Positions 7,883-28,429 of a stretch of DNA of 28,734 bases are shown here, piece after piece. Each line of letters begins with the position of its first letter. Position 1 is the stretch's first letter. Under the pieces are notes generated by a model. That model saw only the letters and a list, made by a program, of their open reading frames with translations, was not told the origin of the DNA and ran no database searches. The DNA comes from a virus. The DNA lies in IMG/VR virus record IMGVR_UViG_3300021364_000750, positions 1 through 28,734 of that record. One strand, written 5' to 3'. The position numbers and the translations under genes are program-made.

Positions 7883-8002
7883 TTATAGTAGTGGTGGTTG
7901 ATAATTCCAGTAAATGTATACTGCAGCTATTACACCTAGTATCCCTATCAATGCAGAGATAATAAACTGTCTAATAATTCTTTTTTCTCTTTTACTTCTC
8001 AT
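7883..8002 (-). CDS. very small membrane protein, 39 aa
   Basis: The ORF encodes a basic head ([12 protein letters not shown]) and one hydrophobic helix ([20 protein letters not shown]), then a short tail NYQPPLL. Its ATG overlaps the stop of the bS21 gene (ATGA), which supports translational coupling. Positive-inside topology would put the N-terminus in the cytoplasm. Function unknown; single-helix phage proteins of this size include lysis regulators and host-interaction peptides, but nothing specific is visible. Confidence 0.6.
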
Positions 8003-8235
8003 CGAATATGTCTATAACCTTTCATAGCAGCACGTTTAGCTTCTATTTTCTTTCTACGTTTAATCTCTTGATTCTTTTGATTCCTTTTAGTGTTAGGTTT
8101 CTCATAATATTTTCTATCACGGCATTCTTGAACGATACCTTTACGTTCACATGCTTTTTTGAATCTACGTAGCATTCTATCGAAAGGTTCGACAGTTTTA
8201 TTCTTTGGATTTATTCTTGGTTTTACACTCGTCAT
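7999..8235 (-). CDS. rpsU: ribosomal protein bS21 (phage-encoded)
   Basis: The 78-residue protein shows the bS21 signature: [20 protein letters not shown] at residues 16-35, then [20 protein letters not shown] and a basic [11 protein letters not shown] tail. bS21 sits on the 30S platform near the 3' end of 16S rRNA and affects initiation; phages are known to carry it. Length is slightly above the bacterial 65-71 residues because of an N-terminal extension ([15 protein letters not shown]). It overlaps the small membrane ORF downstream by four bases and lies one base from the methyltransferase stop. No Shine-Dalgarno sequence precedes it; AT-rich bases (TTTTTTAATTAAT) lie before the ATG. Confidence 0.93.
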
Positions 8236-11879: not shown

Positions 11880-12335
11880 TTAAAACCTCAAGTTATATCT
11901 GTTATCGGGGTCGACTGGGTCTACTTGTAAAGGTAAACCAAAGAAGTGTTCTGCGTCCCATGAGTCATAGTTGTTATCCCAAAACCAGTCGTGTCCTTCT
12001 TCACTGACACCTTCTAGAATTGCATCTTCATCTGCTTCACTTCCTTCTGCAAGGTGAACATAAACATCACGTCCACACTCATCAAATGATTCTACGAATT
12101 CGTTTTCAGAAAACTCATCAGGTTCCATATCACCTTCTGCATCATCTGACATATATCCTTCTAACAGTTCTTTATCATCTTCGTCTAATACCTTAATGAT
12201 ATAAGCACCACTTCTCCAAAGACATTCAATGACAACTCTATCTTCACTATCGTTATCTTTGAACACTTCACGTTCTACATACGACTTTTTAAATTTCGGA
12301 TAAATCGTATATTCTTTTCCGACTTCAATTTCCAT
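11880..12335 (-). CDS. very acidic hypothetical protein, 151 aa
   Basis: About a third of the residues are Asp or Glu (for example DDAEGDMEPDEFSENEFVES around 64-83). The N-terminus (MEIEVGKEYTIYPKFKKSYV) and VVIECLWRSGAYIIKVLDED suggest a small beta fold before the acidic part; the C-terminus is Trp/Asp-rich (HDWFWDNNYDSWDAEHFFGL). No known domain is recognised. It is one base away from its neighbours on each side, so it is part of a single operon with gp33 and the exonuclease. Confidence 0.7.
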   Translation of the reverse strand: MEIEVGKEYTIYPKFKKSYVEREVFKDNDSEDRVVIECLWRSGAYIIKVLDEDDKELLEGYMSDDAEGDMEPDEFSENEFVESFDECGRDVYVHLAEGSEADEDAILEGVSEEGHDWFWDNNYDSWDAEHFFGLPLQVDPVDPDNRYNLRF

Positions 12336-12336
12336 A

Positions 12337-13017
12337 CTATACTCCGTATAAATTATTATATCTTTTTCTTAAATCTACTAACTCGTCAATGTAGTCCAGT
12401 GGATTCCCGTAAAAAATCTGAAAGGCATTGTGTCCTTCCACACCTACTAGTGCAACAATCTCTTCGATTGCTTGACCAGTTAATTCTTCAACCATTAATG
12501 CATATGCAGTCATTTGTATCATCCATGGTTTAGTCATATATTCTTCTTTGTATTTTCCACTAGACTTGAAATCTATTACAGATAACACTCCGTCTAACAT
12601 ACCAATACAATCTACACGACCAGCCATTTTTAGATTAGGACTCCACAATGGTGCTTCTAAAGCAAGTGGGACGATTTCGTCTAACACTGGTTGAACTGCT
12701 TTGAACATTCCTTCTTGAAGGACATTATCAAACTCTATAAACTCTTTATCTTTTCTGAGATAGTCTTCTATGTTTTGGTGGAAACTGGTTCCTCGTTTTG
12801 CAGCTTGTGAAGATATCTTATTTGCAGTTTCTTCACCTACACGTTTTCTCCACAACTTGATATGGTCACGTGATAGTAGAGAGGTGACAGTTGTGACACT
12901 TGGATATTTTGCACCAGTGTCGTCAACGTAAAATCTTTTTCCGTCTTCTTGTATTGTGTTAAGTTTGATATTTTCTAAATCAGTGATATCCATAGTTTGT
13001 AATTTTAATTGTGTCAT
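12337..13017 (-). CDS. PD-(D/E)XK (RecB/Cas4-like) exonuclease
   Basis: The 226-residue protein carries the RecB-like nuclease signatures: KRGTSFHQNIEDYL at 75-88, GRVDCIG at 133-139 (motif with D136) and VIDFKSSGKYKEE at 147-159 (D149-x-K151), followed by a helix with Q168 in WMIQMTAYALMVEE, as in Cas4/AddB-type YxxQ signatures. N-terminal YPSVTTVTSLL is common in phage members. It probably degrades or trims DNA in recombination-dependent replication, together with gp32 and RNase H elsewhere in this segment. No Cys cluster is visible, so no Fe-S cluster of the Cas4 type is expected. Confidence 0.85.
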   Translation of the reverse strand: MTQLKLQTMDITDLENIKLNTIQEDGKRFYVDDTGAKYPSVTTVTSLLSRDHIKLWRKRVGEETANKISSQAAKRGTSFHQNIEDYLRKDKEFIEFDNVLQEGMFKAVQPVLDEIVPLALEAPLWSPNLKMAGRVDCIGMLDGVLSVIDFKSSGKYKEEYMTKPWMIQMTAYALMVEELTGQAIEEIVALVGVEGHNAFQIFYGNPLDYIDELVDLRKRYNNLYGV

Positions 13018-13023
13018 TCTATT

Positions 13024-13335
13024 TTACTTCTTTCTTGACTGTATGTCAATGTGTTTTTGTATAGTATCTCTAGTCTTAACTTCTTTTGTAGACTTTCGGT
13101 GATACCTTTCACCTAATGGTGTGTCGATATTGTTAGAAGCAATCTTGGACATTACTTCTTGGAATCCACTATCGGGTTTAACTCTATCTCCATGACCACC
13201 AACTGTATCGGGTGCATGAAGGATAACTTGTTTGAGGTGTGGGTTGTCTTCTTTGAATTGGTCTAACTTTGTATAGGACATGATACGTTCTTCTATACAA
13301 CCAGTTTCTTCATTCTTAAATGTGTAAGTCGGCAT
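13024..13335 (-). CDS. FmdB-like small phage protein lacking zinc cysteines
   Basis: The start MPTYTFKNEETGCIEERIMS follows FmdB-type zinc ribbon proteins (MPTYEY.C..CG), but only one Cys remains, so the metal site is lost. The middle is GFQEVMSKIASNN and the end RYHRKSTKEVKTRD plus a charged tail, a pattern I associate with conserved proteins of marine T4-like phages. Function unknown; interaction with nucleic acid is possible from the basic C-terminus. Its ATG overlaps the stop of the 59-residue ORF upstream (TAATG). Confidence 0.7.
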   Translation of the reverse strand: MPTYTFKNEETGCIEERIMSYTKLDQFKEDNPHLKQVILHAPDTVGGHGDRVKPDSGFQEVMSKIASNNIDTPLGERYHRKSTKEVKTRDTIQKHIDIQSRKK

Positions 13336-13514
13336 TATATATCTCTGTCTTGAATTACTTTCTCGACCATGTCCTTCACTTGTTGTTCTTTATACCATAG
13401 ACCACTGAGAAATGAAGTTGTTTCATTGTCCCATTCGATAACATATCTTCTATAACCAAAAGGTCTCTCGTAAAAGATTCTGATATCACCATAATTTTCA
13501 ACTAATACTCTCAT
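13335..13514 (-). CDS. small hypothetical protein, 59 aa
   Basis: Translation gives MRVLVENYGDIRIFYERPFG then YRRYVIEWDNETTSFLSGLW and a helical charged end. The ORF fills the gap between its neighbours exactly: ATGA overlap with the upstream gene stop at 13511-13514 and TAATG overlap with the next start. That fit is good evidence it is real. The alternating aromatic/charged N-terminus suggests a small beta sheet. No function recognised. Confidence 0.65.
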   Translation of the reverse strand: MRVLVENYGDIRIFYERPFGYRRYVIEWDNETTSFLSGLWYKEQQVKDMVEKVIQDRDI

Positions 13515-14047
13515 GACATAAAACTCGGAATGGGTCTACCAGTCCATTTTGCAAATTCTTTTTTGTAGACTGCATAGTATTTATGGTATGCATCTATAAC
13601 ACTTTCAGACTTCACGTCTTCAGGCATACACTGAGGTGGTTCGGTGAACTTAGTCTTAGGTATGTTCTTTGGAACTTCTGATAACACTACACATAGTTTT
13701 CTGTATGTCTCATGAACTTTACCATAACGGAAAGTGTATTCAAAACATAACTGTCTCCATAGTGCAAGTAAGTGTTGATAATTTTCTACACTCTCTCTAG
13801 CCCATACTGCAGTTGGGTGATTGATATGAGAAGCTTTGTAAAGTGTTTCTTCCATTAATTGTTCGGGGTGTCTCCACCTACGAATTCTACGATTGAGTTT
13901 TGTTCTCCCTTCGTATTCTTCTCCGTCCAACATTCTATGTGCAGTAGACATAAGTTGTGCATACTCAATAATCATTTTAACAACATGTTTGTCACAATGA
14001 AGTGTTGCACACTCTGTCGGGTCTTTACTCAAATAGAATAAGTTCAT
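13511..14047 (-). CDS. conserved phage protein (CDKHVVKM family), 178 aa
   Basis: The sequence LHCDKHVVKMIIEYAQLMST (17-36) and the ending KKEFAKWTGRPIPSFMS are hallmarks of a protein found in very many tailed phages, often in the nucleotide-metabolism region. Some annotations call it a pyrimidine-dimer glycosylase-like protein, but I see no residue set that proves this. Conserved residues include C18, D19, K20, H21 and a SHINHPTAVWARESVENYQ segment. It overlaps genes on both sides by four bases. Confidence 0.75.
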   Translation of the reverse strand: MNLFYLSKDPTECATLHCDKHVVKMIIEYAQLMSTAHRMLDGEEYEGRTKLNRRIRRWRHPEQLMEETLYKASHINHPTAVWARESVENYQHLLALWRQLCFEYTFRYGKVHETYRKLCVVLSEVPKNIPKTKFTEPPQCMPEDVKSESVIDAYHKYYAVYKKEFAKWTGRPIPSFMS

Positions 14048-14313
14048 AATGATTTAATCTCTCCCAAGATTTTTTCTACGTTTACCCATGAAAGATGTCC
14101 AATGACATCATCAGTTATACCACTAGTATAACACAACTCTTCTCCTTCGAGAACCGCTAATTCCCATAAACCTTGTTTACCACCATATGAGAAATCGTGT
14201 TTCACTACACTTGCACCATAACCATTTGGAAATGAATACTTGTGTTGCACTCCACCATTTACATAATCAGTATCCTTGAGATACTCTCTAAAGTTTTCTA
14301 CAGTATCATACAC
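14044..14313 (-). CDS. hypothetical protein, 89 aa
   Basis: Not recognised. The protein reads MYDTVENFREYLKDTDYVNG, then a beta-rich middle (YGASVVKHDFSYGGKQGLWE) and GITDDVIGHLSWVNVEKILG, which resembles small conserved proteins of coliphages and marine phages with the pattern G-x-G-A-S-V...LWE-x-A. It overlaps its downstream neighbour by four bases and the upstream zinc-ribbon gene by 16 bases. No catalytic residues are evident. Confidence 0.65.
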   Translation of the reverse strand: MYDTVENFREYLKDTDYVNGGVQHKYSFPNGYGASVVKHDFSYGGKQGLWELAVLEGEELCYTSGITDDVIGHLSWVNVEKILGEIKSL

Positions 14314-14477
14314 TCTTCTTTCTCCTCAATATAATATAATTTATTATAACATATAGAACATGCTTGTCCTACCCCATAAACGTAATTGTTTCTTTTTTCA
14401 ACATGAGTGTCAACTGGGACTTTAGTGTCACACTTGCACACTACACATGATTCGGTTTTACCATTTTTCTGTGACAT
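14298..14477 (-). CDS. small zinc-ribbon protein, 59 aa
   Basis: The start at 14477 is chosen because AAGGAG sits six bases upstream; a longer frame from 14528 has no ribosome binding site and would overlap the previous gene more. The protein has CVVCKC at 11-16 and CSIC at 40-43, together a likely four-Cys zinc ribbon, with a short acidic tail ending EECMIL. It overlaps the upstream gene by 20 bases. Such tiny ribbons bind nucleic acid or RNA polymerase in other phages, but no target can be assigned here. Confidence 0.65.
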   Translation of the reverse strand: MSQKNGKTESCVVCKCDTKVPVDTHVEKRNNYVYGVGQACSICYNKLYYIEEKEECMIL

Positions 14478-14691
14478 CTGCAACTCCTTTTTCATAATTC
14501 CATGGGACTGATACTGAGTATGGGTCACTCATAGAACTACCAACATATTTAAAATTCTTTTGAACAACGAAAGGTGCAACATGGTCAAAGTAATGTTCAA
14601 CACAAGTGTCTTCCTTATCTGCATATTTCTCAATCTCTTCATAAAGACCATATACTAATTGTCCGTCTTGTAATTGTGCAATTTCTATCAT
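14458..14691 (-). CDS. hypothetical protein, 77 aa
   Basis: Reads MIEIAQLQDGQLVYGLYEEI with VEHYFDHVAPFVVQKNFKYV in the middle and ends VADVTEKW. The ATG overlaps the stop of the small membrane protein upstream (ATGA). It is mildly acidic, with no membrane segment or Cys pattern. Not recognised; retained because the overlaps on both ends fit the operon. Confidence 0.6.
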   Translation of the reverse strand: MIEIAQLQDGQLVYGLYEEIEKYADKEDTCVEHYFDHVAPFVVQKNFKYVGSSMSDPYSVSVPWNYEKGVADVTEKW

Positions 14692-14855
14692 GCAATTAAA
14701 ATTTGTATAATTGGTGGAAAGAAATATGTGTATACCATAATTGCAAATATGATTAACAATATTGCAACTGCAAGTTTGACTCCAAACTTTATAACAGCTG
14801 GAAACACTCTAAATGCAAGATAGATACACGTGAATAAACCTATAATCTCTAACAT
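14688..14855 (-). CDS. small membrane protein (holin-like size), 55 aa
   Basis: MLEIIGLFTCIYLAFRVFPA and VIKFGVKLAVAILLIIFAIM followed by VYTYFFPPII make two hydrophobic helices separated by a short basic turn. It begins two bases after the stop of the wall hydrolase gene and ends in an ATGA overlap with the next gene. A two-helix protein next to a muralytic enzyme is the usual arrangement of holin and endolysin, so a lysis role is plausible. No charged C-terminal tail typical of many holins is present, so this stays a hypothesis. Confidence 0.6.
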   Translation of the reverse strand: MLEIIGLFTCIYLAFRVFPAVIKFGVKLAVAILLIIFAIMVYTYFFPPIIQILIA

Positions 14856-14857
14856 AA

Positions 14858-15421
14858 TTACCTATAAAAAATGTGGTCTGTTATTTGAACTGTTTCATTC
14901 AGTGAATCATTCCAATATGGGTCAACCATAATTGAATGATAATGTGTTGCACCTTCTGTAATGTCGGGATACTTACCCATGATTACGTCTTGTGCAATTT
15001 GATATGATTCAAAGAACGTATCAGTGTCTAGAGGTTCGTCTGACTTTCCGTCACAAAACCAACTAAACTGACACTGGTGTCTGATAGGAACTAAATTACC
15101 TTTCCAGTTCTCTCTTAATTTTGCCTGATACACTACACCACAAATATCTTTAGGGTATGAGGCATGTTCCATACGATTGATTACAACTTGTGCAACTGCA
15201 ACCTTTCCAGCAAGTGGTTGATTACCTGCTTCGAAATAAATGTTTTTTGCTAAACAAACTGCATCACCATTCTCGTCAAATGCCTGAACCTTTTGTGGTA
15301 TTAACAGAATGAACATAAGTAAGGCACCAAAACCCATTCCTGCGAGGAATGATTTAAATACTAGTGAACCTTTATACTTGACTTCCTCGTCAATTGCTTT
15401 TCCCCATTTACTAGGCTGCAT
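14858..15421 (-). CDS. SleB-type cell wall hydrolase with N-terminal membrane anchor
   Basis: The C-terminal domain (from CLAKNIYFEAGNQPLAGKVA) is the Hydrolase_2/SleB fold: the Glu in IYFEA is the conserved catalytic one, followed by VVINR and CQFSWFCDG. The family cleaves peptidoglycan, often as a lytic transglycosylase. The start at 15421 (187 residues) has GGAG six bases upstream; a longer frame from 15466 overlaps the previous gene more and lacks a site. Residues about 20-47 (LVFKSFLAGMGFGALLMFIL) form a signal anchor ending QKVQAF, so export through the host Sec path is likely. This is probably the endolysin; lying outside the tail block, it is unlikely to be a tail lysozyme. Confidence 0.85.
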   Translation of the reverse strand: MQPSKWGKAIDEEVKYKGSLVFKSFLAGMGFGALLMFILLIPQKVQAFDENGDAVCLAKNIYFEAGNQPLAGKVAVAQVVINRMEHASYPKDICGVVYQAKLRENWKGNLVPIRHQCQFSWFCDGKSDEPLDTDTFFESYQIAQDVIMGKYPDITEGATHYHSIMVDPYWNDSLNETVQITDHIFYR

Positions 15422-18981: not shown

Positions 18982-18989
18982 TATTTATA
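18982..18989 (-). promoter_or_regulatory. T4-type late promoter TATAAATA, five bases before an ATG
   Basis: Exact TATAAATA on the - strand followed by ATACT and then ATG at 18976. In T4 late promoters the octamer spans about -13 to -6, so the first transcribed base would be the A of the ATG. It overlaps the last codons of the SDR gene. Confidence 0.65.
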
Positions 18990-19584
18990 CTTCTTGATTA
19001 GGATACCTTATGTATCTTTCTAATTCTTTTAAATCTTGTTTATCACTTTGAACTTCACTATAGTTTGCTCTATGTTGCATTGTTATTTCGGGAAACTCTA
19101 CAGAAGGATATGCAGTGATTAACTTGAACACTAAGTGTGCAATATCATTCTTTGCAAGACTAGGAAGTTCGTCATGGTCAATCAATCCTAAGTTCAGTGT
19201 AGTCATTTTATATTTCTTTTTAGAGTTGTAAGTTAGATTATTTGCAAGGTGATTGAGTTGTGCTTTCTCACTTGCATAGACATAACCTTTAGATATGTTT
19301 GGTTGACTTGCACGACTAGAGAAGTTGATAATCATTTTACTTCCTTCGTCTTTCCAAGCTTCATGTGCAATTGATAGAATCTTTGTTTGGTCTTGGTGTG
19401 CAAAATTTATCAATACGTCACAAGGACTATGTCCATTGAATATCCAACAGTTCTTTCCGTTTGCAGTTATGTCCTCACAACGAATTGACGTGACTGTATG
19501 GGTTTGACCAGCAGTTGGAGTTGCTTCTATAACGTCTTTGATTGTTTTTGCAAGACCACTACTTCCTGTTATTGCTATTCTCAT
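18985..19584 (-). CDS. short-chain dehydrogenase/reductase (SDR), 199 aa
   Basis: A Rossmann start MRIAITGSSGLAKTI (nucleotide loop residues 7-13), an NFSS strand end at 87-90 (active-site Ser region) and Y103-ASE-K107 (YxxxK) give the SDR catalytic set. It is shorter than typical SDRs (about 250), lacking much of the C-terminal substrate part. It overlaps the radical SAM gene by 26 bases. The two may act in sequence on one small molecule, for example a sugar or a modified base, but the substrate is not visible. Confidence 0.8.
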   Translation of the reverse strand: MRIAITGSSGLAKTIKDVIEATPTAGQTHTVTSIRCEDITANGKNCWIFNGHSPCDVLINFAHQDQTKILSIAHEAWKDEGSKMIINFSSRASQPNISKGYVYASEKAQLNHLANNLTYNSKKKYKMTTLNLGLIDHDELPSLAKNDIAHLVFKLITAYPSVEFPEITMQHRANYSEVQSDKQDLKELERYIRYPNQEV

Positions 19585-20488
19585 AATATTTTCTCACTAT
19601 ATCGAAAGAGGGTTTCCCAAAGAGTGACCCGTCTACACTACACTTATTACAAGGAGATTGACTTCTATCTCCCTTCATTAATTTCTTTCTAATCTTTGTC
19701 ATAGGTTTAGAGAACCATACGTCATGTAAAGACATAGTCAATAGATTACCTACAACGTGTTCTCTTCCCCAATCATTACTACAGAAGAGAACGTCACCAT
19801 TCCAATCAACAAACATTTTATAGAATGGATAGTGACATGGTTTACCTTTTAGATTTTCTATAGTATCGTCTTCAACACCAATCCAATCAATAACACCACT
19901 TCTATTATTTAGTATCAATCCATGTTTTTCAAAATCACCCCAATGCATTCTGAATTTATATTGGTCTTCTCTTATACGTGCTTCTGACAACATAGTGTCG
20001 AAGTGTTCCATTTGTTCGGGGCCGTCATACAGATTGATATACAACTGGTCGAGTCCACTACGAAAAAGTTTCTTGAGATATTCTACGTCTAACTTATCAC
20101 CATTCGTATTACACTCTAGTGTTGCTTGTGGTAATTCTACGTGGAATGCTTTTACAATTTCTGCAAAGTTTGGATTCAATAAGTTCTCACCGAATCCACT
20201 AAAAGATATTTTACCTTGGTATCCATTGTCTGCTAATTCTTCTGCAATGGTTTCAGCACCCTTAATTGTAAGGTGGAGATTCCTGTTGGGAAATACTGCT
20301 GGGTCATGTCTTGGACAAAAGACACATGTCCGATTGCACAACTCAGTAGTATTAATTTCAATTGTAAGAATTGAGTCAAGGGGTTTATCACCTCTTACTT
20401 CGTTGAAGTGTTTCTGTTCCTGTTCTCTCCTATGTTCAAGAAAATCGAACTGGTCAACTGCTGTAATTGGGATATTTCTTTGTTCCAT
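19559..20488 (-). CDS. radical SAM enzyme with SPASM-type C-terminal cysteines
   Basis: The 4Fe-4S/AdoMet motif is C51-NRT-C55-VF-C58. SGFGENLLNP (97-106) is the expected GGEP-like strand. Near the C-terminus C218, C236, C280 and C283 (KPCHYPFYKMFVDWNGDVLF, then CSNDW and PCNKCSVDG) form a SPASM/twitch-type auxiliary cluster. Enzymes of this kind modify peptides, sugars or small molecules through a 5'-deoxyadenosyl radical. The partner SDR overlaps downstream and an unknown beta protein lies three bases upstream. Phage examples are uncommon outside marine T4-like genomes as far as I know. Target unknown. Confidence 0.85.
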   Translation of the reverse strand: MEQRNIPITAVDQFDFLEHRREQEQKHFNEVRGDKPLDSILTIEINTTELCNRTCVFCPRHDPAVFPNRNLHLTIKGAETIAEELADNGYQGKISFSGFGENLLNPNFAEIVKAFHVELPQATLECNTNGDKLDVEYLKKLFRSGLDQLYINLYDGPEQMEHFDTMLSEARIREDQYKFRMHWGDFEKHGLILNNRSGVIDWIGVEDDTIENLKGKPCHYPFYKMFVDWNGDVLFCSNDWGREHVVGNLLTMSLHDVWFSKPMTKIRKKLMKGDRSQSPCNKCSVDGSLFGKPSFDIVRKYYENSNNRK

Positions 20489-20491
20489 GGT

Positions 20492-20902
20492 TTAACAGAT
20501 TGAAACCTTGAGGTGTCTCTCTGTTCCTGTAGCTTTTTCACTTTGGTATTCATAACGAATTTTATCTCCTATTTTAAAATTGCAATAATCGTTGGGAAGT
20601 CTTATAAACTTTGAACAAGTTAAATCGTCAAGTTCTACACTCTTTGGATTTCCGTCAACTTTATAATAATATGTAGGGGTTTTAAGAAGGTTGGGTTTGT
20701 CTAGTGTAAGACATGATATGAAAAGATTATCGTCTTCCCAATAAACATTGATTTCGTCTTCGTATAAAAATCCAATCTTCATGCAATAGACATAAGGGAT
20801 ATCTAAACGTATCCCTTCTTCTATATTGTAAATTGGACTATAAGGGGTTAATGAAAAGACTTCTGAGTCTTTAGAAATAACCTCCGTCTCTCCTATCATC
20901 AT
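20492..20902 (-). CDS. hypothetical beta-rich protein, about 136 aa
   Basis: The frame is open from 20935, but the ATGs at 20902 and 20899 shorten the overlap with the acidic gene and are my choice; no clear ribosome binding site decides it. The protein has IYNIEEGIRLDIPYVYCMKI, YWEDDNLFISCLTLDKPNLL, and ends with FKIGDKIRYEYQSEK, a pattern of short strands that suggests a small all-beta domain. Not recognised. It lies between the acidic protein and the radical SAM gene, with a three-base gap to the latter. Confidence 0.6.
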   Translation of the reverse strand: MMIGETEVISKDSEVFSLTPYSPIYNIEEGIRLDIPYVYCMKIGFLYEDEINVYWEDDNLFISCLTLDKPNLLKTPTYYYKVDGNPKSVELDDLTCSKFIRLPNDYCNFKIGDKIRYEYQSEKATGTERHLKVSIC

Positions 20903-22340
20903 CGTCTTCTTCACCTTTAGTGGTTTCAGTTGCACTTATAAATTCATCTGATTCTTGAAGAGATTCGATAAGTGATTCAGTTTGCACTGCAATCGATTCA
21001 ATCATTTCTTCTTTAGTGTCATTGGTTGACACTTCAAAGTTTAGACCTTCTGCAGTTTCTTTGATTTTCTTTTTAGTCATTCCCCTTAGTTCGTCTGCAC
21101 TTGGGATAACTAATTCGTCAAACTCTTCTTCCTCTTCAACCTTTGCATCGTCAATCTTCTTCTGAACAGCTTCTATCATTTCTTCTTCTGAAGCATAAGT
21201 GTTAATCTTCTGTTCTTCTTTGATTGGTGCTTCGATTGTATCACCACTTGTTAGAGGTCTAACATTTGTTTTAGTAATTGGAATACTTGCTGGTTTAGCA
21301 TATGTTGGTTCAGTCTTTACGTCTTCTTCTGCAACCTTTAATTCTGCACCACCATCTTCAGTTGGTGTTTCTACTAGTTCTTCTTCGACTCTATCAACTT
21401 CTGCATAGAAGTCTTCAATACCTTTTGCATCTTCGGGAACTGGTAATTCGATAGTAATAGTTTCGTCTTCTATTGGTAAATCAAATCCGTCTTCTTCTGT
21501 AGACTCATTACCGAATACCATTTCTTCGTCTGCAACTTCTGTTTCAGATTGTTCTTCCCACTCTGAGAATGCTTCTTTTGTTTCTTCAACTTTAGATTGC
21601 AACTCTTCGTCTGCAGTAAATGGAACTGTAGTTTCTGATTGAGGAACGTATCCGTCTGAAATTGATTGAACTTCTGCAACACTTGGTTCAGATTGTTCTA
21701 CTGGTTCTTCGGGATTAAGGAGTCTAGCCATTTGAAATGCTTTAGACGTTTGTTTTGGTTCTCCTTGTTTACCCTTTTGGACTTTAGTTTCGGGTATGGA
21801 CACTCCATGTTCTTGTGCAAGTCGAGCAGCTTCTTCTGCAGACAATTCTACAAATCCGTCTTGATTAAGTTGTCCTTCTTTGACACCAATCACTCCGTCA
21901 TTATTTAAGTCAACATTGATACCATGTGAAGCAAGGATTGCTTCTAGTTGTGCAACTTTAAGTTCTGCATCTTTTCTTTGTTTACGTTGGTCACGAATCT
22001 TATCAGTCAATACAGCTTTGTCTGCTTCAATCTGAGCTTCTTTTGCAAGTCTGTCTGCTTCTTGAAGTTCAACTAATTGTTGTTGTGCAACTTGAACTGC
22101 TTGATTGTAATCTGTTAATCCTTTATCGATTTCATCTCTTACTGCAATCACAGCGTCGAGTTCTTCAATCTTAATAAGACCACTCTTTAAATGTAATTGT
22201 AATAACGTAGAAACAGCACTTGCAGATTGAGGATTAATTCCTATCTGATAGTTTGCGATACGTTGTTGAACTTTTTGTAGTTCTGTTAATTCGGGAACAA
22301 CTTGTTCACTTGCGAATTCTGATTTCACTTCATTTACCAT
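20871..22340 (-). CDS. long acidic protein with EF-hand-like loop and HeH/SAP-like end
   Basis: The 489-residue protein has a long N-terminal coiled coil (about 60-150), then DLNNDGVIGVKEGQ at about 165-178, close to a Ca2+-binding EF-hand or dockerin loop, then some 200 residues of low-complexity Glu/Thr/Ser sequence, and near 415-445 ELRGMTKKKIKETAEGLNFE, resembling an HeH or SAP-type helix-extended-loop-helix DNA-binding motif. The very end is EEDDDDRRDGGYF. It looks like a scaffold or DNA-associated virion protein, not an enzyme. Its Shine-Dalgarno GGAG lies inside a perfect 12-base palindrome. Function unknown. Confidence 0.75.
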   Translation of the reverse strand: MVNEVKSEFASEQVVPELTELQKVQQRIANYQIGINPQSASAVSTLLQLHLKSGLIKIEELDAVIAVRDEIDKGLTDYNQAVQVAQQQLVELQEADRLAKEAQIEADKAVLTDKIRDQRKQRKDAELKVAQLEAILASHGINVDLNNDGVIGVKEGQLNQDGFVELSAEEAARLAQEHGVSIPETKVQKGKQGEPKQTSKAFQMARLLNPEEPVEQSEPSVAEVQSISDGYVPQSETTVPFTADEELQSKVEETKEAFSEWEEQSETEVADEEMVFGNESTEEDGFDLPIEDETITIELPVPEDAKGIEDFYAEVDRVEEELVETPTEDGGAELKVAEEDVKTEPTYAKPASIPITKTNVRPLTSGDTIEAPIKEEQKINTYASEEEMIEAVQKKIDDAKVEEEEEFDELVIPSADELRGMTKKKIKETAEGLNFEVSTNDTKEEMIESIAVQTESLIESLQESDEFISATETTKGEEDDDDRRDGGYF

Positions 22341-24540: not shown

Positions 24541-25953
24541 CTAGTCCTCTTCAGAAGTATCGTGTTTGTTTGTCAATAGGAATTTCCTAGACGGGTTAAT
24601 CATTAAGTTTGCACGATTCATAAAATCTCTATTTGCAAGAAAAGGGATTTTACCTCTTTGGTCTAAACTGACTTCCTGTTCATATATAGTATTTAAGAAG
24701 TTTAACTCACACATTACAACTGGTCTTGTCTCAGCTGGTTTGATTAATGTAAGTTCTCTGACCAAAGGTTTCTTATACTTTTTACCATTCCTTTCAAAGT
24801 GAACAACCTTTCCTTTAACCTCATAAGAGTCTGCGTGAAGGGCACAAGCGTTTGCACTGTTCCCAGTGTCTAGCTTAACAGTCATCGTCTCACCATCGAC
24901 CTCTATGGTCTCGAGAACACCACATTCAGTTGCACTCTTCTTCCAAATATTTCTATCGAAGTAATCGTCTATGATTGTCTCACAAACTTCTTCACCAAGT
25001 GCTTCTGAGATTCCTTGTGACCCAGGCGACTGGTTGACCTCTAAAATAAAAGGTGCATCTTTGTCTCTGTTATCAGCAGGAATAAAGTCAACACCAACCC
25101 ATTGACCATTTACTGATTTTGCAGCGATAAGACATGTTTCTTTTTCTAAATCTGTTAGTTCTATTTCTTCTGCTTCTGCACCTTGTGAAATATTAGAACG
25201 GAAGTCGTCAATGATTTTCTTACGTTTCATTGCACCGATAATTCTTTTATTGTTTATCATAACACGGACATCATATTCCATGTCGATATATTCCTGTAAA
25301 AGGATATCACAATTAGGGTCAATCTTATACACTAGACTCACTGTAGACTGCAGAGAACGTTCCGTTTCAACAAGCAATACACCAACCCCTTTTGCACCTT
25401 GAAGTGTCTTTAGAACCATTGGGAATTCGTTGTCGAGTCTTTCAGCAGCTAAGTCTACAGTCTCGGGGTCTTCGTTTGGAACCAAAACTGTTCGAGGTTG
25501 GTTCATTCCGATTTCCTGTAATCTCAAATACGTTCTAAACTTATCTGCACATACTTCGATACACTCCCTTGAATTGACTACAGGGAATCCGTATCTTTCT
25601 ATTTGTGAAATTAAATCTAAGTATGAATCTTTAGTTGTGACTGCACCACGAACCATAACAAGTGTATCTGCATCTAATTCAAAACCTTTCTTATCGTCTT
25701 GGTTATGAATTGTGATAACACCATTGTCGTCACGTTCAATATATGCACCATTCACTTTAACACTATACACTTCACAACCACGTTCTTTTGCAATGTTATA
25801 AAGTTTACTTGAAGTTGAACTGGGTTTCTTTACTACGGGTTTATCGGCATTCTTCTTTGTCCTTTTCACCATGCGACGTTCTGCAATGACAACCAAACGA
25901 TATGGTTTATCATTAGTCTTCTCTTCCGAGATTAACTCATTGAACGATAACAT
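24541..25953 (-). CDS. RimK-type ATP-grasp ligase fused to RimB/retropepsin-like domain
   Basis: The start at 25953 has GAGGA eight bases upstream; an ATG at 25968 also exists. Residues about 15-130 are the pre-ATP-grasp domain; 175-345 is the ATP-grasp fold, with FPMVLKTLQGAKGVGVLLVE, LLQEYIDMEYDVRVMINNKR and FILEVNQSPGSQG (metal-binding E and N). These match RimK, which adds Glu to ribosomal protein S6. From about 350 a second domain, VKLDTGNSANACALHA (a DTG catalytic motif), RPVVMCELNFL and SLDQRGKIPFLANRDFM, matches the ATP-dependent zinc protease/RimB family of retropepsin-like proteins found with rimK in bacteria. A single chain joins ligase and protease-like parts. The target could be S6 or another protein tail. 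Confidence 0.85.
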   Translation of the reverse strand: MLSFNELISEEKTNDKPYRLVVIAERRMVKRTKKNADKPVVKKPSSTSSKLYNIAKERGCEVYSVKVNGAYIERDDNGVITIHNQDDKKGFELDADTLVMVRGAVTTKDSYLDLISQIERYGFPVVNSRECIEVCADKFRTYLRLQEIGMNQPRTVLVPNEDPETVDLAAERLDNEFPMVLKTLQGAKGVGVLLVETERSLQSTVSLVYKIDPNCDILLQEYIDMEYDVRVMINNKRIIGAMKRKKIIDDFRSNISQGAEAEEIELTDLEKETCLIAAKSVNGQWVGVDFIPADNRDKDAPFILEVNQSPGSQGISEALGEEVCETIIDDYFDRNIWKKSATECGVLETIEVDGETMTVKLDTGNSANACALHADSYEVKGKVVHFERNGKKYKKPLVRELTLIKPAETRPVVMCELNFLNTIYEQEVSLDQRGKIPFLANRDFMNRANLMINPSRKFLLTNKHDTSEED

Positions 25954-25957
25954 TCTT

Positions 25958-26296
25958 TTATTCCTCATGTTTAATTAACTGAACAAATTTTTCTGCGTCC
26001 ATAACCACTAAAGGTTTATGACGATTCCTTTTTATTACTACAAGGGGTTCATACCCTTTGCAATTTTCAGAAGCTTGTTCGTATGCTTTCCATACATTTA
26101 CTGCTTCTTGATTCTTACATTCTACACTAAAAGGAAATAACTGTCTAGATTGTTTTCCAAGAATAATGTCCTCACCTTGAGAACCCATAGGTCTTGATTC
26201 TATATCTTCAGAATCTAATCCTAGTGTTTCGACTAGAACGTTTGCAAACCACTGTTGTAGTTTACGACCTTTAGCTTTTGCTGATGATGTTTTCAT
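25958..26296 (-). CDS. small PD-(D/E)XK nuclease-like protein (Holliday-resolvase type)
   Basis: The ATG at 26296 (112 residues) is chosen; a GTG at 26308 in frame is also possible. GSQGEDIILG and FPFSVECKNQEAVNVWKAY hold the G-x-D and E-x-K spacing of the VRR-NUC/HJC-type nuclease fold, with a Q in the following helix (YEQASENCKGY). C-terminal PLVVIKRNRHKPLVVMD supports the fold. It could resolve branched DNA or repair ends. It overlaps the Fe-S carrier gene by 26 bases and contains the ribosome binding site of the RimK-like gene at its 3' end. Confidence 0.75.
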   Translation of the reverse strand: MKTSSAKAKGRKLQQWFANVLVETLGLDSEDIESRPMGSQGEDIILGKQSRQLFPFSVECKNQEAVNVWKAYEQASENCKGYEPLVVIKRNRHKPLVVMDAEKFVQLIKHEE

Positions 26297-26597
26297 TAAA
26301 TTGCACACTCACTCCACAACCACAACTGGATTGTTCATTTGGATTTATAAATTTAAAAAATTCATTTAATCCTTCTTTAATATAATCTAGTGTCATACCT
26401 TCTAAAAAAGGTTGACTGTTCTTATCTATAAGAAAAGAAAACTTACCATAGTCTATGACTTCGTCTCCGTCTTTTATAGTATCTTCTGCAAAAACATACT
26501 CAAATCCAGCACAACCACCACCAGTCACACCAAGTCTTACTGACTTAACATTTCTTTCTAATAGTTTTTGTATTGCAATGTCCGAAACTTCTATCAT
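26271..26597 (-). CDS. A-type iron-sulfur cluster carrier (HesB/IscA/ErpA family)
   Basis: The 108-residue protein has the three family cysteines: C29 in VTGGGCAGFEY and C92/C94 in SSCGCG, 63 residues apart as expected. It also keeps the KFSFLIDKNS strand region. A-type carriers pass Fe-S clusters to apo-enzymes. Here a client could be the radical SAM enzyme of this phage (one Fe-S cluster in the core and one in the C-terminus), or a host enzyme. The ATG follows TATAAATA by five bases and has no ribosome binding site. It overlaps the nuclease-like gene downstream by 26 bases. Confidence 0.92.
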   Translation of the reverse strand: MIEVSDIAIQKLLERNVKSVRLGVTGGGCAGFEYVFAEDTIKDGDEVIDYGKFSFLIDKNSQPFLEGMTLDYIKEGLNEFFKFINPNEQSSCGCGVSVQFNENIISKS

Positions 26598-26602
26598 AGA
26601 AG

Positions 26603-26610
26603 TATTTATA
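26603..26610 (-). promoter_or_regulatory. T4-type late promoter TATAAATA, five bases before the Fe-S carrier ATG
   Basis: Exact TATAAATA on the - strand, then CTTCT, then ATG at 26597. Same geometry as at 18982-18989. It lies three bases after the stop of the carbamoyltransferase C-terminal gene and would start the transcript at the A of the start codon. Confidence 0.65.
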
Positions 26611-26613
26611 CAA

Positions 26614-27228
26614 TTAGCTTAAGTCTTGAGGTGGGTAATTTGTTCTCTTGTCTTTACACAACTCGTAAGGAATTGCAATCTCTTGGTCTTCGGGGATATA
26701 TAAATGATTTATCTCAGAACGATTACATGTATCGATTGCATCAAAGATATTCTCTACCAGTGCTTCACCACCTAGATTAAATGAAGTGTTAAAGATAATT
26801 GGTGTCCCAGTGATTTCACCAAACTTTTTAATTAAATCGTAATAGTTTTTATTCTGTTCACGATTGACTGTTTGAATTCTACAGGTTCCGTCTGCATGAA
26901 CCAAACTAGGAATCTCGTCATATGCTTTTTGTTTCGCTTGAATTGCAAAAGACATATTCGGTGAAGACTTGAGTTGCAACATTTCAAAATATTCATGTGC
27001 ATGTTCTTCTAAGATACTTCCTGCGAATGGACGATAGTCTTCTCTACGTTTGACTGAGTTAACAATTTGTTTTGCATGAGAATTACGTGGGTCAAATAAT
27101 ATACTACGATTACCTAATGCACGAGGCCCCCACTCTGACTGACCTTGAAAGATTGCAACAATTTGTCTGTTGTCAATCAGTTCATGCAAAACGTCATCTA
27201 AATTTCTATGTATTCTCGTTATTATCAT
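26614..27228 (-). CDS. carbamoyltransferase C-terminal (YrdC-like) subunit
   Basis: The 204-residue protein is the C-terminal domain of NodU/TobZ-type carbamoyltransferases: QSEWGPRALGNRSILFDPRN (residues 30-49), VKRREDYRPFAGSILEEHA (58-76) and TGTPIIFNTSFNLGGEALV (139-157) are its core. That domain makes the carbamoyl-adenylate transferred to a hydroxyl by the N-terminal Kae1-like half. Normally both are one chain of about 570 residues. Here it is a separate ORF overlapping its partner by 23 bases in a different frame. A weak GTGAG about ten bases before the ATG could serve as ribosome binding site. Confidence 0.85.
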   Translation of the reverse strand: MIITRIHRNLDDVLHELIDNRQIVAIFQGQSEWGPRALGNRSILFDPRNSHAKQIVNSVKRREDYRPFAGSILEEHAHEYFEMLQLKSSPNMSFAIQAKQKAYDEIPSLVHADGTCRIQTVNREQNKNYYDLIKKFGEITGTPIIFNTSFNLGGEALVENIFDAIDTCNRSEINHLYIPEDQEIAIPYELCKDKRTNYPPQDLS

Positions 27229-28429
27229 TATTTTTACTCACTATATCTTTATTCTTAAATAACAGGTCAAGGTGAACACACGCACCAAACGCAGTTCCCC
27301 CGTCATGTGGAATTGGGTCAACAAAAAATTGGTGGTCGGGGAAGACACTTAAATATTTGTAATTGTTTGTGCAATTCAACGCATACCCACCACTTAATAC
27401 TATGTTCTTACAGTCGGGATTTAAATCGATTGCTTTTTGTATGGTCTTACAAGTGTTATCGAATGCATGAAGTTCTAACTCTTGTGCATACGCAAAATTA
27501 TTAAAGTTTCGTTTCGGTGCTGGTTGCACAACACCATAACTTGCCATACCCATTACTTTACCTGCGGCACGTCCTAGGTGGTCACACCCAAGTGCATGGG
27601 ATAGGTTAGAGAAGTCCATACCATTACTTGGTCTAGAAGTGTATTCGTATTCTATTCCGTTCTTGACTTCGATTACATTCTCACCTTCATAATCCAATGA
27701 CCCGTGTTGTTGATTCGGGAAACCATTGTTATGGTGATTACCTAACGCTCGGTGATTAGAACTTAATACCCATTGACGTTCTGCAAACTCACCTTTACGC
27801 ATTCTATAAATGGATTCAATCTCTTGATAAGACCGCCAGTTCTCCCAGTCTAACCTTGCACCACCTCCGTCCATGGTGATTGCAATACAGTCTTCATTGT
27901 CTTGGTAATAAGGACTGAGGTGATAACCACAATAGGCGTGAAACAGGTGGTGTTCATACCAAAAATAATATGAGTGGATTGGTTCTCCGTTAACTTCGAA
28001 CTGACTTGCAAACCCGTCATGAATTCCTTTCTCTTCGATAATACCACCGACACCACTGTCTGCAATATAATCACTGTATTTTTTTACGAGTTCTTGTTCA
28101 CGTGCATTGTTAAGTGGTTCTGCACGTATCCAGTCTGCAATTTCGATTGAGACCATACGATTCTCTAAGAGTTTATCTACCTTCCAATCTATGTTGAAAC
28201 TACGTCTATCAAAACTTGCAAAGACTAATTCATCAGGTCGTTGCACACCACCTTTATAGATTGCAGACAACACGTCATGGTGTTGGTCGTCATTTTGTTT
28301 GTAATGGGGTGACCAATATTTGTGTCTTCTGAAGCGGTCTTCTTCATACATGAAATCGAGTGTTTGGGTTTCGGTATCATACTGACACACGGAAGTGTCA
28401 TGACTGGAATTTATTCCCACAATTTTCAT
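27206..28429 (-). CDS. carbamoyltransferase N-terminal (Kae1-like) subunit
   Basis: This 407-residue protein has the ASKHA-type start MKIVGINSSHDTSVCQ, EHHLFHAYCGYHLSPYY (metal-binding His pair near 158), AITMDGGGA, a LGRAAGKVMGMASYG segment and NIVLSGGYALNCTNNYKY near 345, all typical of the NodU/CmcH/TobZ carbamoyltransferase N-terminal domain. It ends with a charged tail (KNKDIVSKNNDNNENT) and stops inside the start of the C-terminal ORF. Possible substrates are sugars, nucleosides or a DNA base; which is not visible. AGGAT precedes the start. Marine T4-like phages are known to carry carbamoyltransferases. Confidence 0.88.
   Translation of the reverse strand: MKIVGINSSHDTSVCQYDTETQTLDFMYEEDRFRRHKYWSPHYKQNDDQHHDVLSAIYKGGVQRPDELVFASFDRRSFNIDWKVDKLLENRMVSIEIADWIRAEPLNNAREQELVKKYSDYIADSGVGGIIEEKGIHDGFASQFEVNGEPIHSYYFWYEHHLFHAYCGYHLSPYYQDNEDCIAITMDGGGARLDWENWRSYQEIESIYRMRKGEFAERQWVLSSNHRALGNHHNNGFPNQQHGSLDYEGENVIEVKNGIEYEYTSRPSNGMDFSNLSHALGCDHLGRAAGKVMGMASYGVVQPAPKRNFNNFAYAQELELHAFDNTCKTIQKAIDLNPDCKNIVLSGGYALNCTNNYKYLSVFPDHQFFVDPIPHDGGTAFGACVHLDLLFKNKDIVSKNNDNNENT

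What the first reader, a model, noticed from the sequence alone, without database searches (positions are those of the whole stretch)
24541..25953. RimK-like ligase and RimB-like retropepsin in one phage protein
The ATP-grasp half matches RimK (S6 glutamate ligase). The C-terminal part has DTG and the other motifs of the ATP-dependent zinc protease/RimB family, which sits next to rimK in bacteria but as a separate gene. A fused phage version suggests a self-contained editor of a ribosomal protein tail: one half adds residues, the other trims or controls. With bS21 in the same window it points to ribosome reprogramming during infection.
Basis: partly seen in the sequence, partly recalled or inferred. 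Interest (0 to 1): 0.8.

Follow-up and report, generated by a model that had tools for sequence, protein, structure and literature searches.

The report
Capsid-tagged RimK-RimB ligase-protease of marine phages
A marine T4-like phage encodes one protein that joins a glutamate-adding enzyme to an HIV-protease-like domain; the pairing was already reported, but its start looks like the signal that T4 uses to load proteins into the virus head, so it may be injected with the DNA.

Summary
The minus-strand ORF (24541-25953 or 25968) is a RimK-family ATP-grasp ligase followed by a RimB/RloA-type retropepsin with an invariant D-T-G-N. Profiles, two AlphaFold models and PDB searches agree. It is a large marine family: at least 508 IMG/VR relatives, plus Pelagibacter phage Mosig and Yersinia phage YerA41.

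The pairing is not new. Phage RimK with C-terminal DUF785 was reported in 2008, and bacterial RimB-RimK hybrids, in the reverse order, were studied in 2025. So 'separate genes in bacteria' is wrong. bS21 is real, but nothing ties it to this enzyme, and S6 specificity is unproven.

What I did not find in print is the N-terminus. MLSFNELISE|E matches, residue for residue in spacing, the T4 capsid-targeting sequence MKTYQEFIAE|A. The motif is kept across RimK-RimB phages and in a RimK-only phage clade that apparently lost the protease. In the window's clade the gene run begins at a T4-type late promoter, and relatives encode the prohead protease. The YerA41 homologue is annotated as a structural protein.

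Best reading: a virion-packaged, injected ligase-protease acting on a host protein tail (S6 the leading but unproven target). Packaging and target need experiments.

The parts
24541..25953 (-). RimK-RimB fusion gene from its most likely start codon (ATG at 25953; 470 aa). The longest frame starts at 25968 (475 aa).
25924..25953 (-). N-terminal capsid-targeting-like tag MLSFNELISE, with a presumed prohead-protease cut after the tenth residue
   Evidence: same register as T4 IPII/IPIII MKTYQEFIAE|A; F9 (475-aa numbering) in 30 of 30 rows; only exact-register match among 48 ORFs of the window
24964..25821 (-). RimK-family ATP-grasp domain (residues about 50-335 in 475-aa numbering)
24559..24936 (-). 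RimB/RloA-type retropepsin domain (residues about 345-470)
24862..24870 (-). D-T-G, the presumed catalytic aspartate motif (residues 367-369)
   Evidence: invariant in 30 of 30
25958..26308 (-). RusA-like Holliday junction resolvase / PDDEXK gene, directly upstream and overlapping the fusion gene by 11 bases (if the first ATG is used)
26271..26597 (-). IscA/HesB-like iron-sulphur gene, first of the run
   Evidence: PF01521 E 8.4e-14
26603..26610 (-). TATAAATA, T4-type late promoter element whose first base lies 13 bases before the IscA start, heading the IscA-RusA-RimK/RimB run
   Evidence: exact in 13 of 23 loci; same element before portal and tail genes in relatives

Best explanation
The gene encodes a virion-borne bifunctional enzyme. 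It is made late, drawn into the prohead by an N-terminal T4-type capsid-targeting sequence, trimmed after MLSFNELISE by the phage prohead protease, and injected with the DNA, as T4 Alt is. In the new host its RimK domain uses ATP to add amino acids, most likely glutamate, to the C-terminus of a host protein, with ribosomal protein S6 the leading candidate. Its dimerising retropepsin domain trims or stimulates that tail, as RimB does for RimK. Shown here: both domains, conserved catalytic residues, the tag, the late promoter of the window's clade, and prohead proteases in relatives. Inferred: packaging, cleavage, injection, activity and target.
For: Domains and folds. Ligase residues shared with Pseudomonas RimK, including FRSN, the QEYI glutamate, D-R, MKR and the E-V-N loop, are invariant or nearly so in 30 relatives. 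Tag: T4 IPII and IPIII start MKTYQEFIAE|A and the 10-residue CTS is cut off by gp21 (PMC10229621, passages); the window protein reads MLSFNELISE|E in the same register. Phe is 30 of 30 and the +2 acidic position 29 of 30, followed by a variable linker; residues 1-20 are pLDDT under 50. Over nine phage records an exact-register tag begins 12 of 1872 ORFs, among them both T4 internal proteins, against 8 internal matches in 412,493 aa. In G002 and G004 the prohead-core gene next to gp21 starts MKSFRTVQSELNEAK and MKSFQQMTEELNEAK. Late promoter: TATAAATA 13-22 bases before IscA in 13 of 23 loci. Prohead protease PF03420 in G002, G003, G004, Mosig, Melnitz and YerA41. YerA41 homologue annotated 'structural protein'.
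Against: Only 12 of 30 family rows have the exact 10-residue register; the others carry 1-2 residue shifts and a few lack the terminal Glu, such as L071. The regex class is only modestly enriched overall: 29 matches against 11.7 expected, with some ORFs counted twice. YerA41's protein lacks the tag. In Mosig-type phages the gene lies between regA and the DNA polymerase with no TATAAATA close by; the nearest conserved one is about 590-610 bases upstream in 3 of 9 loci and Mosig. No particle proteomics was found for the window's clade. Bacterial RimBK was proteolytic but did not glutamylate RpsF in the one test (PMC11957791). S6-specific models are not met.
Confidence: 0.5

Rival explanations
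1. One reading: an enzyme acting only inside the producing cell, editing the S6 tail (with bS21 as partner) to favour phage mRNAs. The N-terminal motif is then just a lineage-specific helix.
For: RimK fold and motifs; bS21 in the window and in Mosig; in Mosig the gene sits among replication genes; a translation role was also proposed in 2008.
Against: Late promoter in the window's clade. S6-ligase equivalog not met. Disordered N-terminal tag in the T4 register. bS21 has a basic C-terminus and lies 16 kb away.
Confidence: 0.2
2. A head-assembly factor: targeted to the prohead, it adds or trims acidic tails on scaffold or head proteins during maturation and does not act on the host.
For: The tag resembles the prohead core protein start; late promoter; RimB cuts runs of glutamate (PMC11957791) and the 489-aa window protein at 20871..22340 holds a run of five Glu.
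Against: A T4-type gp21 already does head proteolysis; a ligase needs ATP, which a closed head would lack (inference); many T4-like phages do without it (HTVC008M is not among the 27 records hit).
Confidence: 0.15
3. A ligase for a small molecule or free poly-alpha-glutamate (MptN-, CofF- or LysX-like), draining or reshaping host glutamate, with the retropepsin only as activator.
For: MptN model scores above the S6-ligase model; RimB stimulates free poly-Glu synthesis by RimK (PMC11957791, abstract and discussion).
Against: Closest solved folds are RimK proteins, first the RimK-RpsF complex; no pathway genes for such a cofactor among the window genes scanned (20 proteins against PHROGs; 11 against Pfam).
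Confidence: 0.12

Closest known systems
Phage RimK with C-terminal DUF785/PF05618 in Global Ocean Sampling contigs (2008, PMC2530865)
   Same: Same domain order, same phage neighbourhood (regA, T4-like genes); the same family as far as the passages show
   Different: That paper did not know DUF785 was a retropepsin, and the passages read do not mention an N-terminal capsid tag, late promoter or packaging
Bacterial RimBK hybrid (Desulfotalea psychrophila DP2392; PMC11957791)
   Same: RimB-type retropepsin and RimK ligase in one chain
   Different: RimB is N-terminal there and in all 17 long hybrids seen here; the phage order is reversed and tagged
Pseudomonas RimK and RimB
   Same: Fold, ligase motifs, DTG site
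   Different: Separate proteins; S6 specificity of the phage enzyme untested
T4 internal head proteins IPII/IPIII and Alt
   Same: N-terminal 10-residue tag with Glu at position 10; Alt is carried in the particle and modifies host RNA polymerase (T4 record annotation)
   Different: Different enzyme chemistry; packaging not shown

Membership tests
RimK family (TIGR00768, PF08443) | Score above curated cut-off | tested here: met
   158.1 against 143.4 bits; 106.3 against 21
RimK family (TIGR00768, PF08443) | RimK ATP-grasp fold | tested here: met
   Top Foldseek hits 5zk6, 7qyr, 7qys; with 4iwx, TM by target 0.80-0.86, E 6e-21 to 2.5e-18
S6--L-glutamate ligase (PRK10446) | Equivalog score | tested here: not met
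   89.7 against 331 bits, so not filed as an S6 ligase
S6--L-glutamate ligase (PRK10446) | Adds Glu to the S6 C-terminus | not testable with these tools
   needs an assay
PF05618 retropepsins (RimB, RloA) | Pfam gathering score of the single sequence | tested here: not met
   17.9 against 27 bits; therefore called a diverged relative, not a plain member
PF05618 retropepsins (RimB, RloA) | Homology at profile level | tested here: met
   98.6%, E 1.2e-15, controls 0.1% and 0.3%; 2pma E 1.4e-6, 9g58, 9g59
PF05618 retropepsins (RimB, RloA) | D-[TS]-G catalytic motif and retropepsin fold | tested here: met
   30 of 30; Z 13.6 to 2pma, 13.3 to RloA
PF05618 retropepsins (RimB, RloA) | Cleavage of poly-Glu tails as a dimer | not testable with these tools
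   needs an assay
RimBK hybrid | RimB domain N-terminal to RimK | tested here: not met
   order reversed; 17 of 17 long hybrids among 30 Bacteroidota loci have RimB first
T4-type internal (capsid-targeted) protein | N-terminal 10-residue CTS ending in Glu | tested here: met
   MLSFNELISE|E against MKTYQEFIAE|A; exact register in 12 of 30 relatives, shifted in most of the rest
T4-type internal (capsid-targeted) protein | Phage encodes the prohead protease | tested here: inconclusive
   Absent from the 28.7 kb window, a fragment; present in relatives G002-G004 and six named phages
T4-type internal (capsid-targeted) protein | Late expression | tested here: met
   TATAAATA heads the run in 13 of 23 loci; sequence evidence only; not seen next to the gene in Mosig-type phages
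T4-type internal (capsid-targeted) protein | Found cleaved inside virions | not testable with these tools
   only hint: YerA41 homologue annotated 'structural protein'; its LC-MS table was not readable here

The most novel reading that the evidence does not exclude
A whole branch of abundant marine T4-like phages packs a protein-tail ligase, usually with its own antagonistic retropepsin, inside the head and injects it with the DNA, so that a host protein tail is rewritten before any phage gene is expressed: an Alt-like virion effector with glutamylation chemistry.
Probability: 0.45. Interest if true: 0.82.

Novelty: new variant of a known kind. Interest (0 to 1): 0.6.

Why it matters
If the tag works, the open question of what phage RimK does changes from 'late translation helper' to 'virion-borne effector'. 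It also gives a direct test in two cultured phages: look for the protein, cut after the Glu of the tag, in Mosig and Melnitz particles. Phage polyglutamylation of a host protein at injection would be a new chemistry for injected phage effectors, in phages of SAR11 and OM43, among the commonest marine bacteria.

Tried and rejected
bS21 as partner or substrate: present but distant and basic-tailed. S6 as proven target: equivalog not met; no SAR11 genome could be reached for its S6 tail, because the one genome-contig scan found only a phage contig binned in a Sphingobacteriales MAG (L015). A YerA41-seeded scan of viral contigs found no relative. A sigma-70 scan gave no more promoters than shuffles (19 against 21.9). 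Megablast of most of the window against phages: no match. Foldseek with the full-length model listed only ATP-grasp folds among the rows shown, so the C-terminal domain was modelled alone.

Tag statistics: the loose regex gave 29 matches against 11.7 expected. G004's own fusion protein (MIRTFNEIVLQEAK) fails the regex, and HTVC008M has no tagged ORF at all. Rows left out before counts: of 80 loci, four were cut off at a contig end (L072, L075, L079, L080) and not extracted; L077 was dropped; of the 35 non-redundant rows, L023, L054, L064, L065, L068 and L073 were left out of alignment A2, and all six keep the Phe but L073 has an insertion and no ATG. 35 of 68 Melnitz-type loci were read for tags. 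L009 was left out of the promoter count because its IscA gene is cut off.

The tree has flagged long branches (cyanophage S-RIM32, YerA41, L214); the place of YerA41 is unsure.

Papers: PMC11957791 outline, sections 5, 13 and 14 and passages; PMC2530865, PMC7354516, PMC3012670, PMC9391042, PMC10229621 and PMC9004378 passages only; PMC9023294 was searched for six terms with no hit. 'Not found in print' for the tag rests (listings; of their papers passages were read in PMC3012670, PMC9391042, PMC10229621 and PMC2530865 only; PMC7412058 was not opened). A fused phage RimK-retropepsin IS in print. Recalled, from no call: that TATAAATA is the T4 late promoter and that gp21 cuts after [LI]xE.

Full report
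WHAT IS THERE. The minus-strand frame 24541..25968 encodes 475 aa. Residues about 50-335 are a RimK-family ATP-grasp domain, with RimK structures as the closest folds and the ligase motifs shared with Pseudomonas RimK. Residues about 345-470 are a retropepsin domain of the RimB/RloA kind. The evidence is the profile-profile match to 30 bacterial RimB domains (98.6%, E 1.2e-15; cross controls 0.1% and 0.3%), the PDB profile hits and the separate model. The aspartate motif D-T-G-N is invariant in 30 of 30 aligned relatives and in Mosig and YerA41.

HOW COMMON. Cultured relatives are Pelagibacter phage Mosig (42%) and Yersinia phages YerA41 and GN1 (32%), while Methylophilales phages Melnitz and several cyanophages match over the RimK part only. 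The window phage is T4-like: its ssDNA-binding protein is nearest to Melnitz, Mosig and cyanophages, and long relatives have gp23 and gp21. Its host is unknown.

WHAT IS ALREADY KNOWN. In 2008 RimK homologues were reported in marine phage contigs, several with DUF785/PF05618 on the C-terminal side, next to regA and other T4-like genes; that paper also notes DUF785 at the N-terminal side in some bacteria and at the C-terminal side in Halobacteria (PMC2530865, passages). In 2025 RimB was shown to be a retropepsin that trims polyglutamylated S6 and stimulates RimK, and a natural RimB-RimK hybrid was shown to be a protease, without seen ligation of RpsF (PMC11957791). In 296 Bacteroidota genomes 82 have PF05618; of the 30 loci fetched, 17 are long hybrids and all have RimB first. 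So the fusion itself, and the ribosome idea, are not new.

WHAT IS NEW HERE: THE N-TERMINUS. From the ATG at 25953 the protein starts MLSFNELISE|E. T4's internal head proteins II and III start MKTYQEFIAE|A (read from the T4 record), and that 10-residue capsid-targeting sequence is removed by the prohead protease gp21 (PMC10229621, passages; PMC3012670, passages). The two align position by position. In 30 relatives the Phe is invariant, the residue two further on is Glu or Asp in 29, and the following linker varies. The model leaves residues 1-20 below pLDDT 50. An exact-register match begins 12 of 1872 ORFs in nine phage records, among them both T4 internal proteins, and occurs 8 times inside proteins over 412,493 aa. 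In the window it marks this one ORF of 48. In G002 it also marks three other ORFs (51417-51815, 59867-60067, 63475-64263), and a nucleotidyltransferase/AAA protein carries a one-residue-shifted version. In G002 and G004 the small gene next to gp21, in the place of T4's prohead core genes, starts MKSFRTVQSELNEAK or MKSFQQMTEELNEAK, much like the fusion's own start. Gp23 cleavage-like sites read AFLSE|AAP in Mosig and Melnitz. Caveats: only 12 of the 30 relatives keep the exact register, and the looser pattern is only 2- to 3-fold enriched (29 against 11.7).

THE TAG OUTLIVES THE PROTEASE. In a tree of 31 RimK domains the RimK-only clade of Melnitz is one group (97/95) inside the RimK-RimB rows when bacterial and cyanophage RimK lie outside, so the protease was probably lost there. 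29 of 35 of those RimK-only proteins still match the tag pattern. The tag therefore seems to serve the ligase.

LATE EXPRESSION. TATAAATA stands upstream of IscA, the first gene of the IscA-RusA-fusion run (first base 13-22 bases before the aligned start), in 13 of 23 loci; six of the other ten are one base off. The same element is concentrated within 35 bases of ORF starts: 6, 6, 12 and 2 ORFs in G002, G004, Mosig and the window against 0.35, 0.37, 0.55 and 0.08 expected, including portal and tail genes. In Mosig-type phages the gene lies between regA and the DNA polymerase and has no such element close by, so late expression is shown by sequence only for the window's clade.

VIRION EVIDENCE. 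The YerA41 homologue is annotated 'structural protein' in the record, near a ribonucleotide reductase subunit noted as present in the particle; the paper reports 63 particle proteins by LC-MS, but its table could not be read. YerA41's protein lacks the T4-type tag, although that phage has a gp21-like protease (E 1.5e-8).

MECHANISM, STEP BY STEP. Shown: two domains, conserved active sites, tag, late promoter in this clade, prohead protease in relatives. Inferred: core packaging, cleavage, injection, glutamylation of a host tail, trimming by a retropepsin dimer. The S6 target is a guess from family: the S6-ligase equivalog is not met and MptN scores higher. bS21 (7999..8235) is real but has a basic C-terminus.

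VERDICT. The capsid-delivery reading was not found in three library searches, is directly testable in cultured phages, and is what makes the finding interesting.

Noticed in passing
26614..27228 and 27206..28429 (-): Carbamoyltransferase (NodU-like) split into N- and C-terminal parts in overlapping frames. Both parts recur as separate matches in 22 relatives' loci, in different frames in 21 of them, so it looks like a stable split rather than a sequencing error.
   Followed up: partly
18982..18989 and 26603..26610 (-): TATAAATA whose first base lies exactly 13 bases before start codons, as before portal and tail genes of relatives: likely T4-type late promoters of marine T4-like phages.
   Followed up: yes
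L111 (G002 58584-59870, 59867-60067, 51417-51815): A cytidylyltransferase-like/AAA_33 protein and two small proteins carry the same capsid-tag-like N-terminus: candidate further packaged proteins.
   Followed up: partly
L237 (Melnitz 12203-13288, 13281-14528, 14525-14917): Three consecutive hypothetical proteins with tag-like N-termini, shortly downstream of a TATAAATA at 12156: possible internal head proteins.
   Followed up: partly
20871..22340 (-): 489-aa acidic protein without a PHROG match, with a run of five Glu, a possible RimB-type cleavage site.
   Followed up: no
L015: A contig in a Sphingobacteriales MAG (GTDB) carries a 97% identical fusion gene with the same phage neighbours: phage contig binned with a bacterium.
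   Followed up: no
19559..20488 (-): Radical SAM/SPASM protein next to phage genes; role unknown.
   Followed up: no
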